Positions 32,222 through 35,996 of a DNA stretch of 64,000 bases are shown piece after piece; position 1 is the stretch's first letter; each line of letters begins with the position of its first letter. This DNA is from Gammaproteobacteria bacterium. GTDB taxonomy: Bacteria > Pseudomonadota > Gammaproteobacteria > Enterobacterales > Psychrobiaceae. A program made the translations under genes and the position numbers. Location: positions 1-64,000 of the forward strand of contig JABSRU010000027.1 in the NCBI GenBank assembly GCA_013214965.1, in the 5' to 3' direction. The notes beneath the pieces were generated by a model, which was given only the letters and a program-made list of their open reading frames with translations, did not search any database and had not been told where the DNA came from.

Positions 32222-32515
32222 ATGAAATATAACTTAATCGGCTTAGCTATTTCGATATTGTGGTTAGCTGGCTGTCAAGCCTCCAGCACAGGGTCCGAAA
32301 CTAAAGAACTCGCTGAGATTAAATCAGTAACGGTTAAAAAACCACCTAGTCGTTGTGGGATGTCACCGCCAGTATTAAATCGTGACAAGATTACTGCGAT
32401 GTTAATTAAGTCTGGAAAAATAGCCGTTACAGCAACGCCTCAAGAACAGTCTCAGCAAGTACAGCAGTTCATTAATAATAAAAGAAAAGCATTTAGTAAA
32501 AAATGCCGTGGTTAA
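32222..32515 (+). CDS. Small lipoprotein resembling the M6 protease pro-region
   Basis: 97 residues from the ATG at 32222. Lipobox LAGC gives lipidation of Cys near 17. After a linker, residues of the C-terminal half (from SPPVLNRDKI to SKK) align without gaps to the N-terminal region of the protease encoded 15 bp downstream (DPALINQERI to SRQ): by hand 15 of 47 identical, most others conservative. I infer a membrane-anchored copy of the protease pro-segment, possibly an inhibitor or folding helper. Alternative: a stray fragment after gene duplication, though the lipobox argues for function. Confidence 0.75.
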   Translation: MKYNLIGLAISILWLAGCQASSTGSETKELAEIKSVTVKKPPSRCGMSPPVLNRDKITAMLIKSGKIAVTATPQEQSQQVQQFINNKRKAFSKKCRG

Positions 32516-32530
32516 ATGTTAGGAATCATC

Positions 32531-35248
32531 ATGAATATAAAAACAACAAGAGTAATAACGAGTCTACTGTATCTTTTTACGCTGGGGCAAGCGATTGCTG
32601 CCACCACTGAACCCCTGACCATTGATCCGGCTCTAATTAATCAAGAACGCATTGCTTATTGGCTTAAAAAACGTAATCAACTAACTGTTGCAGCAACTGA
32701 GCAGCAAATAAATGCTCAAGTGACTCGCTATATTGATAATTATCGACATAAGTTGTCACGGCAGCGGTTAATTATGTCACCAAGCGCATCAACTTCAAAA
32801 GCTAGCGCGCAACGGGCCAAACAGCAGCGTTCCACCGTTAATCAATACACCATCACCAACGCTAATGTGCTGGCTATTTTAATTGATTTTCCGGATTTGC
32901 CCTACAATGCCAACCGTTTGAGTCGTGACGATACTGAGATGTACTACGCTGATTATTCTCGGCAGCATTATAGCGATATGCTCTTTAACGTAGACACTTT
33001 TACCGGTCCTAATAACGAATCACTGATTACCAGTCGCTACTATTATCAACAAGAGTCCGGTGGTAGTTTTAATTTTAATGGTCAAGTGGTCGGTTGGTAT
33101 CGCGCCCAACATGATGCTAGCTATTATGGTGGCAATGACAGTGACAATAATAACGCTGACAAAAAAGTCCATGAACTGATAATAGAGGCCGTTAATGCCG
33201 CGGTTAGTCGAGGGGGAATTAACTTAAGTCAATTCGATCAAAACAATGATGGCGTGATTGATCATTTACTTGTTATTCACTCGAGTATTGGTGAAGAGGC
33301 CGGTGGCGGAGTGTTAGGCGAAAGTGCCATATGGTCCCATCGTTTTAGTGTCGGTAACTGGAGTGTTATTGGTAGCCCAATTAAAGTCGATGGTTATACT
33401 ATTCAACCGATTGATTCCGCCGCTGGGGTGGTGGCCCATGAATTTGGTCATGATTTAGGGTTACCCGATGAGTACGATATTAAAAATAATGATATTGGCG
33501 CAACCGTGGCCAATTGGTCCATTATGGCGGCAGGTAGTTGGTTAGGTGCGGTTATAGGCACAGAACCTAACAGTTTTAGTCCCTATGCTCGTGATTATTT
33601 GCAACGTAATTATGGTGGTAAATGGGCGAATCAATTAACGATTAATGCTAAAAATTTAAACCAAGCCGGTCAGCAAATTAATTTAGTGGCAGGGGTTAAT
33701 CATCAAGGGATAACTAATCAGATTAAAGTCGAGTTACCTGCTAATAGCGAACCTTTCATTAAGCCTTATTCCGGTCGCTATCAATATTACTCTGGGCACA
33801 AAAACCAAACAACCGTTAAGCTTTCATTTTCTGCTCAAGTAGCTAATCAGGCTGATGTATCATTGTCGATGAAGGCACAATGGGATACTGAACAAGACTA
33901 TGATTATGTGCAAGTGCGAGCTAATGGTGTGCCGTTAGCTAATCAATACACTAAACTGGGAATAGGCGATTTAGCGGGAGTGAGTAACATTATCACCGGT
34001 CAATCAGCGCCTAATCAATGGCAAACGTTGAACTTCGATTTAAGCGCGTATCGTGATTCATCTGTTAATTTTGAAATTATTTATGTGACCGATGAGCGGG
34101 TGGGCGGTTTTGGCCTAGTGGTTGATGATATTAGTGTCAGTGATTCTTTTACTAATAACGCAGAGAGTGAGTTATTAGCCTTAAATGGCTTCAGCCATAA
34201 CGATGGTAATAAATCTCTTGAACCACAGTTTTATTATATCCAACTGCGCAGTCATTCTGGTTTAGATAAATCCTTAGCCGACATCAGTTATTCACCGGGC
34301 GTATTGATGTGGCTTGCTGATAATAATTATGAAGATAACGATGTCACTAAGCATCCCGGTCATGGTTTTTTAGCCGTAATCGATGCAGATCAACAGATGG
34401 TAAGTCGTGCTAACTCCTTGATCCAAGTGAGTGATGCTGCATTTAGTCTTTATCAACAAATCGGTGCTAAAGGGGATGTTAACACCAATAATATCGCTAA
34501 ATTCGATGATAACAATGACTATAGTTCACCGAGTCAGCCTGAATCTGGGGTTAAGGTCGTGCCTTGGGGGATAACAATGACCGTCACTGCTCAAGCTCAA
34601 AATAGCAGCACTGCGACGATTAATCTTACCCGTGAAATTAGTGAAATTTTGGCAAAATTTAGCGTTCTCACTGATGGCTTAATGGCTAATTTTAGCCAAG
34701 AGAGTAATAGCAACGTTGTGATCACCTCCTATTTATGGAATTTTGGTGACCCGGCATCAACGGCCAATCAATCAACTGAAGCTGCGCCATCGCATGTGTT
34801 CAGTAGCGCCGGTCGTTATGAGGTGACATTAAAAGTGACCGACGCCGACGGTAATGAGGACTCTATAACCAAACAATTGATCGTCAGTCAAGCGTTGGCC
34901 ATCGATATTGTGCGCAGCGCGAGTTACCTTCAGGCGAATTTTTCTGCCAGTGTTGCTGGTGGATTAGCACCTTATCAATATCAATGGGATTTCGGTGATC
35001 AATCGACTTCAAAGGCAGGACCTAGCGTGACTCATACTTACGCGAGTGCCGGAAGCTATCAAGTTAGCTTGAAAATCACTGACAGTTTAGGGCTAGTGAA
35101 GAGTGAGAGTTTTAATTACACGGTCAGTGCTAAAGTGGTGGTTTCACCACCGACAACTGAGACTAAAAAATCAGGAGGTGGTAGTCTGTCATTTATTGGT
35201 TTATTAGGATTAATACTGCTATCAATCAAAAGGAAGAGTAATGGATAA
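32531..35248 (+). CDS. Secreted M6-family (immune inhibitor A-like) metalloprotease with PKD repeats and GlyGly-CTERM
   Basis: 905 residues from the ATG at 32531 (AGGA before it). Signal peptide to about 22, propeptide to about 110, then the M6 catalytic domain with zinc site HEFGHDLGLPDEYD near residue 302. A beta-sandwich region follows, then two PKD-like domains (about 715-795 and 800-880, with YLWNFGDP and YQWDFGDQ). The end is KKSGGGSLSFIGLLGLIL and a basic KRK tail, a GlyGly-CTERM signal for rhombosortase and type II secretion export. Its last bases overlap the next gene. Confidence 0.9.
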   Translation: MNIKTTRVITSLLYLFTLGQAIAATTEPLTIDPALINQERIAYWLKKRNQLTVAATEQQINAQVTRYIDNYRHKLSRQRLIMSPSASTSKASAQRAKQQRSTVNQYTITNANVLAILIDFPDLPYNANRLSRDDTEMYYADYSRQHYSDMLFNVDTFTGPNNESLITSRYYYQQESGGSFNFNGQVVGWYRAQHDASYYGGNDSDNNNADKKVHELIIEAVNAAVSRGGINLSQFDQNNDGVIDHLLVIHSSIGEEAGGGVLGESAIWSHRFSVGNWSVIGSPIKVDGYTIQPIDSAAGVVAHEFGHDLGLPDEYDIKNNDIGATVANWSIMAAGSWLGAVIGTEPNSFSPYARDYLQRNYGGKWANQLTINAKNLNQAGQQINLVAGVNHQGITNQIKVELPANSEPFIKPYSGRYQYYSGHKNQTTVKLSFSAQVANQADVSLSMKAQWDTEQDYDYVQVRANGVPLANQYTKLGIGDLAGVSNIITGQSAPNQWQTLNFDLSAYRDSSVNFEIIYVTDERVGGFGLVVDDISVSDSFTNNAESELLALNGFSHNDGNKSLEPQFYYIQLRSHSGLDKSLADISYSPGVLMWLADNNYEDNDVTKHPGHGFLAVIDADQQMVSRANSLIQVSDAAFSLYQQIGAKGDVNTNNIAKFDDNNDYSSPSQPESGVKVVPWGITMTVTAQAQNSSTATINLTREISEILAKFSVLTDGLMANFSQESNSNVVITSYLWNFGDPASTANQSTEAAPSHVFSSAGRYEVTLKVTDADGNEDSITKQLIVSQALAIDIVRSASYLQANFSASVAGGLAPYQYQWDFGDQSTSKAGPSVTHTYASAGSYQVSLKITDSLGLVKSESFNYTVSAKVVVSPPTTETKKSGGGSLSFIGLLGLILLSIKRKSNG

Positions 35249-35996
35249 AGTTGTTATTGTTACCGGTGGCGCCAGTGGCATCGGTTACGCCGTGGCACAG
35301 TCATTGCGTCAAAATAACTATCGTGTTGTTATTGCCGATTTAAATCAGGCGGTCGGAGAACAAGCCGCTCAGACACTTGGATGTCATTTTGTTGCGGTTG
35401 ATTTATCGCGCCAAGTCGACAATTACCGATTGGTTGAAGAAACGGTAGCTAAATATGGCACGATTGATATTTTGGTCAATAATGCTGGTTTTCAGCATGT
35501 GTGTCCGCTTGACGAATTCCCAGAAGAAATGTGGAATACAATGCTAAGTGTGATGCTGACTTCGCCATTTTTGCTGACTAAATACTGTTGGCCCTACATG
35601 AAGAAAAATGGCTGGGGCAGGATAGTCAATATTGCCTCTGTTCATGGTCAGGTTGCTTCTCCCTTTAAAGCCGCTTATATCAGCGCCAAGCATGGCTTAG
35701 TGGGGTTAACCAAGAGTACAGCATTAGAAGGTGGTGAATTTGGCATTACCGCCAACACGATTTGCCCTGCTTATGTTAAAACCCCGTTGGTTGATCGACA
35801 AATTGCAGATCAAGCGTCAACGCATGGTATTGAACCCGACAAAGTGATTAGCGATATTATGTTGAAAAATGCGGCGATAAAACGCATGATCGAGCCTGAA
35901 GAGATCGGCGAGTTGGTGAATTACATTGTCAGTGACGCCGCCCGTTCATTTACCGGGTCAAATTTGACCATTGATTTAGGCTGGACGGCGCAGTAA
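35241..35996 (+). CDS. 3-hydroxybutyrate dehydrogenase-like short-chain dehydrogenase
   Basis: 251-residue SDR: TGGASGIG cofactor loop, NNAG, Ser in NIASVHGQVASPFK and YISAKHG containing the catalytic YxxxK. The NIASVHG and CPAYVKTPLV segments are specific to D-3-hydroxybutyrate dehydrogenases, which convert 3-hydroxybutyrate to acetoacetate with NAD. It overlaps the protease gene by 8 bp, although the functions seem unrelated. Confidence 0.85.
   Translation: MDKVVIVTGGASGIGYAVAQSLRQNNYRVVIADLNQAVGEQAAQTLGCHFVAVDLSRQVDNYRLVEETVAKYGTIDILVNNAGFQHVCPLDEFPEEMWNTMLSVMLTSPFLLTKYCWPYMKKNGWGRIVNIASVHGQVASPFKAAYISAKHGLVGLTKSTALEGGEFGITANTICPAYVKTPLVDRQIADQASTHGIEPDKVISDIMLKNAAIKRMIEPEEIGELVNYIVSDAARSFTGSNLTIDLGWTAQ

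What the first reader, a model, noticed from the sequence alone, without database searches (positions are those of the whole stretch)
32222..35248. A lipoprotein that copies the pro-region of the adjacent M6 metalloprotease
The C-terminal half of the small lipoprotein aligns without gaps to the protease's N-terminal region: hand count 15 of 47 identical, with conserved N, I, L, K, V, A-T, Q, Q-V, I-N and R-S positions. The genes are 15 bp apart on one strand. A free-standing, membrane-anchored copy of a pro-segment could inhibit the protease before export or help it fold. I know of no named family with this arrangement in M6 proteases.
Basis: partly seen in the sequence, partly recalled or inferred. 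Interest (0 to 1): 0.75.

Follow-up and report, generated by a model that had tools for sequence, protein, structure and literature searches.

The report
Free-standing copy of protease pro-segment
Next to a secreted bacterial protease sits a small, probably membrane-anchored protein that copies a helical hairpin from the protease's own pro-segment; similar pairs recur in many other bacteria and may let the cell restrain its own protease.

Summary
The 97-aa lipoprotein (32222-32512) shares a ~45-residue helical hairpin with the pro-region of the M6 (InhA/PrtV-type) protease 15 bp downstream: 15 of 48 identities, 0 of 2000 shuffles as good; profile-profile probability 96.4%. It matches no Pfam or NCBIfam family over cut-off.

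It is not a local oddity. Of 86 M6 genes (200 bits or more) in 394 genomes of the order, 50 have such a small gene upstream; in 36 none was found on either side. [quoted passage not shown]

Best reading: a propeptide-derived partner that docks on its M6 protease at the pro-hairpin site, most likely as an envelope inhibitor. Docking and inhibition are inferred, not shown. All 81 copies compared lack an Asp found before the hairpin in 153 of 157 pro-regions, so activator, anchor or chaperone roles stay open. The principle is known for cysteine and serine proteases; for M6 my searches found nothing in print.

The parts
32222..32515 (+). small lipoprotein gene: free-standing copy of the M6 pro-hairpin (97 aa)
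   Evidence: homologues beside M6 genes
32222..32275 (+). signal peptide and lipobox LAGC; lipid Cys18 at 32273-32275, +2 residue Gln
   Evidence: sequence; lipobox in 50 of 51 copies of the same type
32354..32356 (+). Cys45, conserved first Cys of a likely disulfide
   Evidence: a Cys pair in 50 of 51 copies of this type, spacing 47-51
32363..32371 (+). Ser-Pro-Pro where M6 pro-regions carry an Asp-containing segment before the hairpin
   Evidence: alignments; position counts
32381..32506 (+). helical hairpin (helices 54-63 and 73-95), ending with Cys95 at 32504-32506
   Evidence: AlphaFold2 block means 87-94 over residues 51-90 and 78 over 91-97
32531..35248 (+). M6 (immune inhibitor A type) metalloprotease, 905 aa
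   Evidence: Pfam PF05547 E 1.7e-87 plus MAM, VEG and two PKD stretches
32624..32626 (+). Asp32, nearly invariant in M6 pro-regions, absent at this place in all free-standing copies compared
   Evidence: 153 of 157 pro-regions; 0 of 81 copies; 33 of 33
32642..32767 (+). pro-hairpin of the protease (helices 38-47 and 57-79)
   Evidence: model aligned to solved InhA2 zymogen 4yu5_B, Z 31.4, model range 35-384
32843..33628 (+). M6 catalytic domain; HEFGH motif at 33437-33451
35174..35236 (+). C-terminal Gly-Gly plus hydrophobic tail resembling GlyGly-CTERM (below cut-off)
   Evidence: TIGR03501 8.3 bits, cut-off 15.5

Best explanation
The lipoprotein is a propeptide-derived partner of the M6 protease. 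Shown: it shares the helical hairpin of the protease's own pro-region, is encoded 15 bp upstream on the same strand, and related hairpin proteins recur beside M6 genes in Gammaproteobacteria and Bacillales. Inferred: after export and lipid anchoring the hairpin sits on the catalytic domain where the protease's own pro-hairpin sat, with a Cys45-Cys95 bridge and the Pro-Pro segment making it hard to cut. There it holds in check protease that is activated inside, or comes back to, the cell envelope. It would be the M6 counterpart of Spi for SpeB or SUB1-ProM for SUB1. That it is a cognate partner I hold near 0.9; that its main act is inhibition about 0.5.
For: Significant homology and the same predicted hairpin; the three best Foldseek rows for the lipoprotein model among 350,542 PDB chains are all M6 zymogen or pro-domain chains: 4yu5_A (0.8 A over 34 residues), the PrtV N-terminal domain 5abk, and 4yu6_B, though with E above 3. 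The protease model superposes on the solved InhA2 zymogen over a range that includes the hairpin. Pairing: of 36 strong small hits in 394 genomes 35 have an M6 gene next to them on the same strand, the other lies at a contig end; 50 of 86 M6 genes of 200 bits or more are paired. In the order of G394 (Bacillales) 18 of 26 copies adjoin an M6 gene, 10 upstream and 8 downstream. The copies look exported (by eye) and conserved cysteines fit a protease-resistant protein. Median dN/dS 0.25 over 66 close, non-independent pairs. In the relative PrtV the purified 81 and 73 kDa forms start at residue 106 (PMC2613228, passages), so the pro-region leaves and a docking site would be freed (inference).
Against: No binding or inhibition data and no complex model. 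All 81 copies compared lack the Asp that precedes the hairpin in 153 of 157 M6 pro-regions, so the copy keeps the docking part and may lack the part that blocks the active site. In 36 of 86 M6 loci no copy was found and 7 of 26 Bacillales copies have no M6 gene in the stretches read. The lipoprotein-model fold matches are not significant (E 3.4 and above); in the second aligner an unrelated chain ranks first (2gwm, Z 3.1) and the M6 chains tie with others at Z 2.8. Own-pair similarity is barely above that of shuffled pairs in one form (p 0.03) and not above it in the other two. dN/dS reaches 0.90 in a Vibrio-type pair.
Confidence: 0.5

Rival explanations
1. Activator or timer: the anchored hairpin competes with the protease's own pro-hairpin for the docking site, loosens the zymogen and so switches the protease on at the outer membrane or cell surface.
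For: The copy keeps the docking hairpin but in 0 of 81 cases the Asp found in 153 of 157 pro-regions; it adjoins the gene.
Against: The two free-standing propeptide relatives looked up here (SUB1-ProM, abstract; Spi, passages) are described as inhibitors; in 36 of 86 M6 loci no copy was found.
Confidence: 0.17
2. Anchor: the lipoprotein tethers the protease or its zymogen to the membrane through the hairpin-catalytic domain contact, keeping it for secretion or at the cell surface.
For: Lipobox in 50 of 51 copies of the window's type and in 5 of 5 Bacillales copies of the same set.
Against: The Vibrio/Photobacterium form shows no lipobox in 25 of 25, so anchoring is not common to all.
Confidence: 0.15
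3. Folding helper: the copy works in trans like an intramolecular chaperone of the M6 zymogen.
For: Propeptides of secreted proteases often help folding (general knowledge; stated for subtilases in the abstract of PMC6993865); in the window the gene precedes the protease gene.
Against: The protease keeps its own hairpin; in 36 of 86 M6 loci, several of them Shewanella, no copy was found; in Bacillales 8 of 18 adjoining copies lie downstream.
Confidence: 0.12
4. Chance resemblance of two short helical stretches, or a decaying duplicate without function.
For: Short match; the lipoprotein-model fold scores alone are weak.
Against: Profile comparison, recurrent pairing, a Cys pair in 50 of 51 copies of this type, median dN/dS 0.25.
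Confidence: 0.02

Closest known systems
SUB1-ProM, stand-alone subtilisin propeptide-like protein of Plasmodium (PMC6993865, abstract and outline)
   Same: Free-standing relative of a protease propeptide, encoded in a locus beside subtilisin-like genes, found in the compartment where its protease acts; a potent inhibitor in the test tube.
   Different: Serine protease, eukaryote, another fold; here a metalloprotease, bacterial, mostly with a lipobox, inhibition untested.
SpeB-Spi pair of Streptococcus pyogenes (described in PMC2873492 and PMC3462683, passages)
   Same: Propeptide analogue encoded next to and co-transcribed with a protease.
   Different: Cysteine protease; PMC3462683 says Spi is thought to act in the cytoplasm, whereas the present copies seem to carry export signals.
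Bacteroides C10 protease / staphostatin-like inhibitor pairs Bfp-Bfi and Btp-Bti (PMC2873492, PMC3462683, passages)
   Same: [quoted passage not shown] suggested to protect the envelope.
   Different: Not propeptide relatives; cysteine proteases.
PepSY domain, found in M4 propeptides and in stand-alone proteins (recalled, not looked up)
   Same: A pro-region domain of a metalloprotease that also exists alone in exported proteins.
   Different: Different domain; no PepSY match in the Pfam scan.
Pro-domain of Bacillus anthracis InhA2 zymogen (PDB 4yu5, 4yu6) and PrtV N-terminal domain (5abk)
   Same: The hairpin itself (only weakly by sequence).
   Different: There it is part of the protease chain; here it is a separate protein with a lipobox and two further cysteines.

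Membership tests
Peptidase family M6 (protease) | M6 catalytic domain with HExxH zinc motif | tested here: met
   PF05547 293.8 bits, cut-off 22; H303, E304 and H307 invariant in 33 rows
Free-standing propeptide-like protease inhibitors (the Spi / SUB1-ProM kind) | homologous to the propeptide of the cognate protease | tested here: met
Free-standing propeptide-like protease inhibitors (the Spi / SUB1-ProM kind) | encoded beside the cognate protease | tested here: met
Free-standing propeptide-like protease inhibitors (the Spi / SUB1-ProM kind) | lacks the catalytic domain and is made as a separate chain | tested here: met
   97 aa, stop codon before the protease start
Free-standing propeptide-like protease inhibitors (the Spi / SUB1-ProM kind) | binds and inhibits the protease | not testable with these tools
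   needs protein work; the structure tool takes single chains
Bacterial lipoproteins | signal peptide ending in a lipobox with Cys | tested here: met
   LAGC at residues 15-18; 50 of 51 copies of this type (own pattern, no dedicated predictor); lipidation itself not tested
PepSY (M4 propeptide domain) | match to the Pfam PepSY model | tested here: not met
   only DUF5340 at E 0.12 listed up to E 10
Staphostatins | lipocalin-like fold, built of strands | tested here: not met
   predicted two helices and no strand of 3 or more residues
Any named family in Pfam-A or NCBIfam | score over the curated cut-off | tested here: not met
   window protein and 7 relatives, none over cut-off

The most novel reading that the evidence does not exclude
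Free-standing pro-hairpins are a general control layer of InhA/PrtV-type M6 proteases that arose more than once: a dedicated envelope partner in Gammaproteobacteria and, separately, in Bacillales, in which loss of the Asp before the hairpin and gain of disulfides or lipid anchors turned a copied pro-segment into a trans regulator of a secreted protease group that includes virulence-linked enzymes.
Probability: 0.35. Interest if true: 0.8.

Novelty: new variant of a known kind. Interest (0 to 1): 0.64.

Why it matters
M6 proteases such as InhA and PrtV are secreted, cut many proteins and are linked to virulence, yet my searches found nothing on how their producers protect the envelope from them. 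A small, unannotated, recurrent partner gene gives a direct handle: express, bind, inhibit, delete. It also adds a metalloprotease case to the idea that propeptides are copied out as separate regulators, and supplies a natural comparison, since within Shewanella some M6 genes have the partner and others do not.

Tried and rejected
Chance match: rejected by shuffles, profile comparison and the pairing survey. Known family: none over cut-off in Pfam and NCBIfam. A window-specific recent duplication: rejected, since lipoprotein and pro-region share only 15 of 48 residues and copies occur in several families of the order. Unpaired M6 genes hiding a copy nearby: none found in 36 loci with three profiles; reach about 1.8 kb past the gene end and about 2 kb before it, less at contig ends (one, L093, has only about 0.5 kb before the frame). 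The weak small-frame rows (best E 0.013 and 0.058) were taken as chance by eye. Limits: at most 12 candidates per genome were scored in the rows shown, and the first profile gave no strong hit for the Vibrio form, so 50 of 86 is a lower bound. Single or multiple origins: the tree of 37 columns is suggestive (Bacillales copies lie among Bacillales pro-regions) but the AU test does not reject one clade of all copies (p 0.375), so undecided. Pair-wise co-evolution: own pair against shuffled pairs p 0.03 for the window's type, 0.91 and 0.49 for the other two; the distance correlation of lipoprotein and catalytic domain (r 0.45, 0 of 2000 permutations) may be plain common descent. Search of 369 genomes of the class with the lipoprotein profile: only the own genome at E 1e-4; the listing shows few genomes of the order in that sample, and M6 presence in it was not counted. 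The first single-sequence scan of genome contigs found no relative. Promoter-like and terminator-like sites were about as many as in shuffles. A plasmid search listed 20 records with M6 matches and was not followed. Papers on the InhA2 zymogen or a small gene linked to PrtV or other M6 proteases were sought without success; I recall, and did not verify, that the InhA2 zymogen paper puts the N-terminal segment of the propeptide at the catalytic zinc.

Rows dropped before counts:-38 copies with the same last 60 residues were taken once (86 to 81), but pro-regions were not made unique, and a few paired proteases whose copy was dropped as a repeat stand among the 77 'other' pro-regions; rows with more than 6 gaps, rows with more than 5 gaps, rows at least 80% alike and most pro-regions without a partner were left out; and 74 rows with fewer than 8 residues before the hairpin column were left out. 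In one search frames of 245-276 aa with E 1e-8 and weaker, and one broken copy (G631), are not in the 26.
Full report
What is there. The window holds a 97-aa lipoprotein gene at 32222-32515 and, 15 bp on, a 905-aa M6 metalloprotease gene starting at 32531 and ending at 35248; both starts have ribosome-site-like sequences. The protease has a signal peptide (by eye), a pro-region, the M6 catalytic domain, MAM and VEG domains, two PKD stretches and a tail that resembles GlyGly-CTERM but is below the cut-off. A short-chain dehydrogenase-like frame overlaps its end by 8 bp.

Is the resemblance real. Residues 47-94 of the lipoprotein align without gaps to residues 31-78 of the protease with 15 identities in 48; the local score of 77 was reached by 0 of 2000 shuffles (maximum 58). 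In its own genome the search lists only itself and this pro-region. A profile of 20 lipoproteins against a profile of 33 M6 proteins (first 390 residues) gives probability 96.4% and E 1.3e-9 over 46 columns, an E-value for that one comparison. AlphaFold2 predicts a 10-residue helix, a loop and a 23-residue helix in both. Against 350,542 PDB chains the three best rows for the lipoprotein model are the InhA2 zymogen (4yu5_A, 4yu6_B) and the PrtV N-terminal domain (5abk), though with E above 3. The second aligner gives Z 2.8 for 4yu5_A (2.5 A over 45 residues) and for 5abk (3.7 A over 49), behind an unrelated chain at Z 3.1 and level with others. So structure agrees but does not prove; the sequence profiles and the gene pairing carry the case. 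The protease model aligns to the solved zymogen 4yu5_B over the range 35-384, Z 31.4, 307 residues, 3.4 A, so the pro-hairpin falls inside the aligned range; gaps inside that range are not shown.

How widespread. A search of 98 related genomes gave 17 with a match at E 0.1 or better, some of them chance or M6 pro-regions. Of the 12 places then read with more flank, eight are small hairpin genes; seven lie upstream of an M6 frame on the same strand and one at a contig end; three others are pro-regions inside M6 genes and one is unrelated. A nine-row profile over 394 genomes of the order gave 36 strong small hits (E below 1e-10): 35 have an M6 frame next to them on the same strand (29, 6) and one, in G003, lies at a contig end. 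The next 13 rows of that search all lie in long frames that one search lists as M6 genes. From the other side, the same 394 genomes hold 86 M6 matches of 200 bits or more. In the other 36 none was found upstream or downstream; they include 8 of 8 loci of the Aeromonas group and a number of Shewanella loci. Among 80 named loci brought in by an M6 alignment and capped at 80, 36 show a copy beside the M6 gene: 20 of the window's type (Kangiella, Shewanella, Ferrimonas, Colwellia and unnamed relatives), 11 in Vibrio, Photobacterium and Enterovibrio, and 5 in Bacillales.

Bacillales (group name recalled). In Alkalihalobacillus macyae DSM 16346, Pseudalkalibacillus spartinae and Bacillus sp. RAR_GA_16 the copy lies about 290 bp upstream of the M6 gene; in two Fictibacillus nanhaiensis genomes it lies just downstream. 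A five-row profile over 299 genomes of the order of the first of these (G394) gave 26 free-standing copies (25 of about 90 bits or more, one of 68). Of these, 18 adjoin an M6 gene (10 upstream, 8 downstream), one has the M6 gene about 1.2 kb away across an opposite gene, and 7 have none within the stretches read, about 5 kb each side or to the contig end. Profile comparison ties this group to the M6 pro-regions (97.3%) and to the lipoproteins of the window's type (98.4%; part of that alignment is signal peptide).

Three forms. Of 81 distinct copies, 51 are of the window's type: a lipobox by my own pattern in 50 (the exception is a split frame in a Shewanella MAG), a further pair of cysteines in 50, with spacing 49 in 39 of them and 47-51 in all, and Asp at +2 in only 1 of 50, which by the +2 rule (recalled) points to the outer membrane. 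Twenty-five (Vibrio, Photobacterium, Enterovibrio, family f2) show no lipobox and look like soluble exported proteins (by eye); 24 have a differently placed cysteine pair. Five Bacillales copies have a lipobox and no such pair. The gap to the mechanically called protease frame is within 30 bp in 47 of 51 of the first form and 6-230 bp in the second. One conservation difference stands out: an Asp three columns before the hairpin core is present in 79 of 80 pro-regions whose partner was kept and in 74 of 77 others, and in 0 of 51, 0 of 25 and 0 of 5 copies of the three forms. In the window's type a Cys and one or two Pro stand in this stretch in most rows.

Origin. Bacillales copies are on average 54.9% identical to the pro-regions of the M6 genes beside them but 29.4% to the lipoproteins of the window's type, and in a 126-row, 37-column tree they lie among Bacillales pro-regions, while the window's type forms one side of a branch with support 78. 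But holding all copies together is not rejected (p 0.375). Repeated origin is therefore plausible but not shown. Selection: dN/dS has a median of 0.25 over 66 close, non-independent pairs and reaches 0.90 in a Vibrio-type pair.

How it most likely works. Shown: shared hairpin, adjacency, conserved cysteines. Read from sequence by eye: export signals. From the literature: two purified forms of secreted PrtV start at residue 106, so its pro-region is lost (PMC2613228, passages); a stand-alone subtilisin propeptide relative inhibits its protease (PMC6993865, abstract); Spi is a propeptide analogue next to SpeB, and Bacteroides C10 proteases have adjacent putative inhibitors, lipoproteins or soluble, suggested to protect the cell (PMC2873492, PMC3462683, passages). 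Inferred: the free hairpin docks on the catalytic domain at the pro-hairpin site and restrains the enzyme in the envelope. The missing Asp is the main reason for doubt and keeps an activator role open; the form without lipobox speaks against a pure anchor; the 36 unpaired M6 loci and the downstream position in part of the Bacillales speak against an obligate folding helper.

Known or new. Neither Pfam nor NCBIfam has a model that matches over its cut-off, and literature searches on M6, InhA, PrtV, propeptide, lipoprotein and inhibitor terms (listings only, except passages of PMC2613228) showed no description of such a partner; subscription papers are mostly not in that library. The principle, a propeptide copied out as a separate regulator, is known for other protease classes. 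I therefore file it as a new variant of a known kind.

Noticed in passing
own genome G000 C56, about 70697-71781 (L128 2198-3282): A second M6 protease gene, broken into several frames, behind Pal- and YbgF-like frames (named by eye); no free-standing hairpin was found beside it.
   Followed up: partly
window 35241-35996: A short-chain dehydrogenase-like frame overlaps the end of the protease gene by 8 bp on the same strand, which may place it in the same transcript.
   Followed up: no
L115 1515-1892: A different small lipoprotein with Sel1-like sequence (by eye) ends next to the frame of an M6 gene that lacks the hairpin copy; perhaps another kind of partner.
   Followed up: no
L140 1238-3334 and 3665-6496: Parashewanella hymeniacidonis has two M6-like frames in tandem, and no free-standing copy was found in the locus.
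   Followed up: no
L247, L249-L253: In some Bacillales the free-standing copy is away from any M6 gene and sits beside a short-chain dehydrogenase-like frame; in L248 the M6 gene is still on the far side of such a frame.
   Followed up: partly
G631:C1:42159-42431: A copy-like stretch with three stops in frame upstream of what looks like an M6 pro-region, apparently a decaying copy.
   Followed up: no
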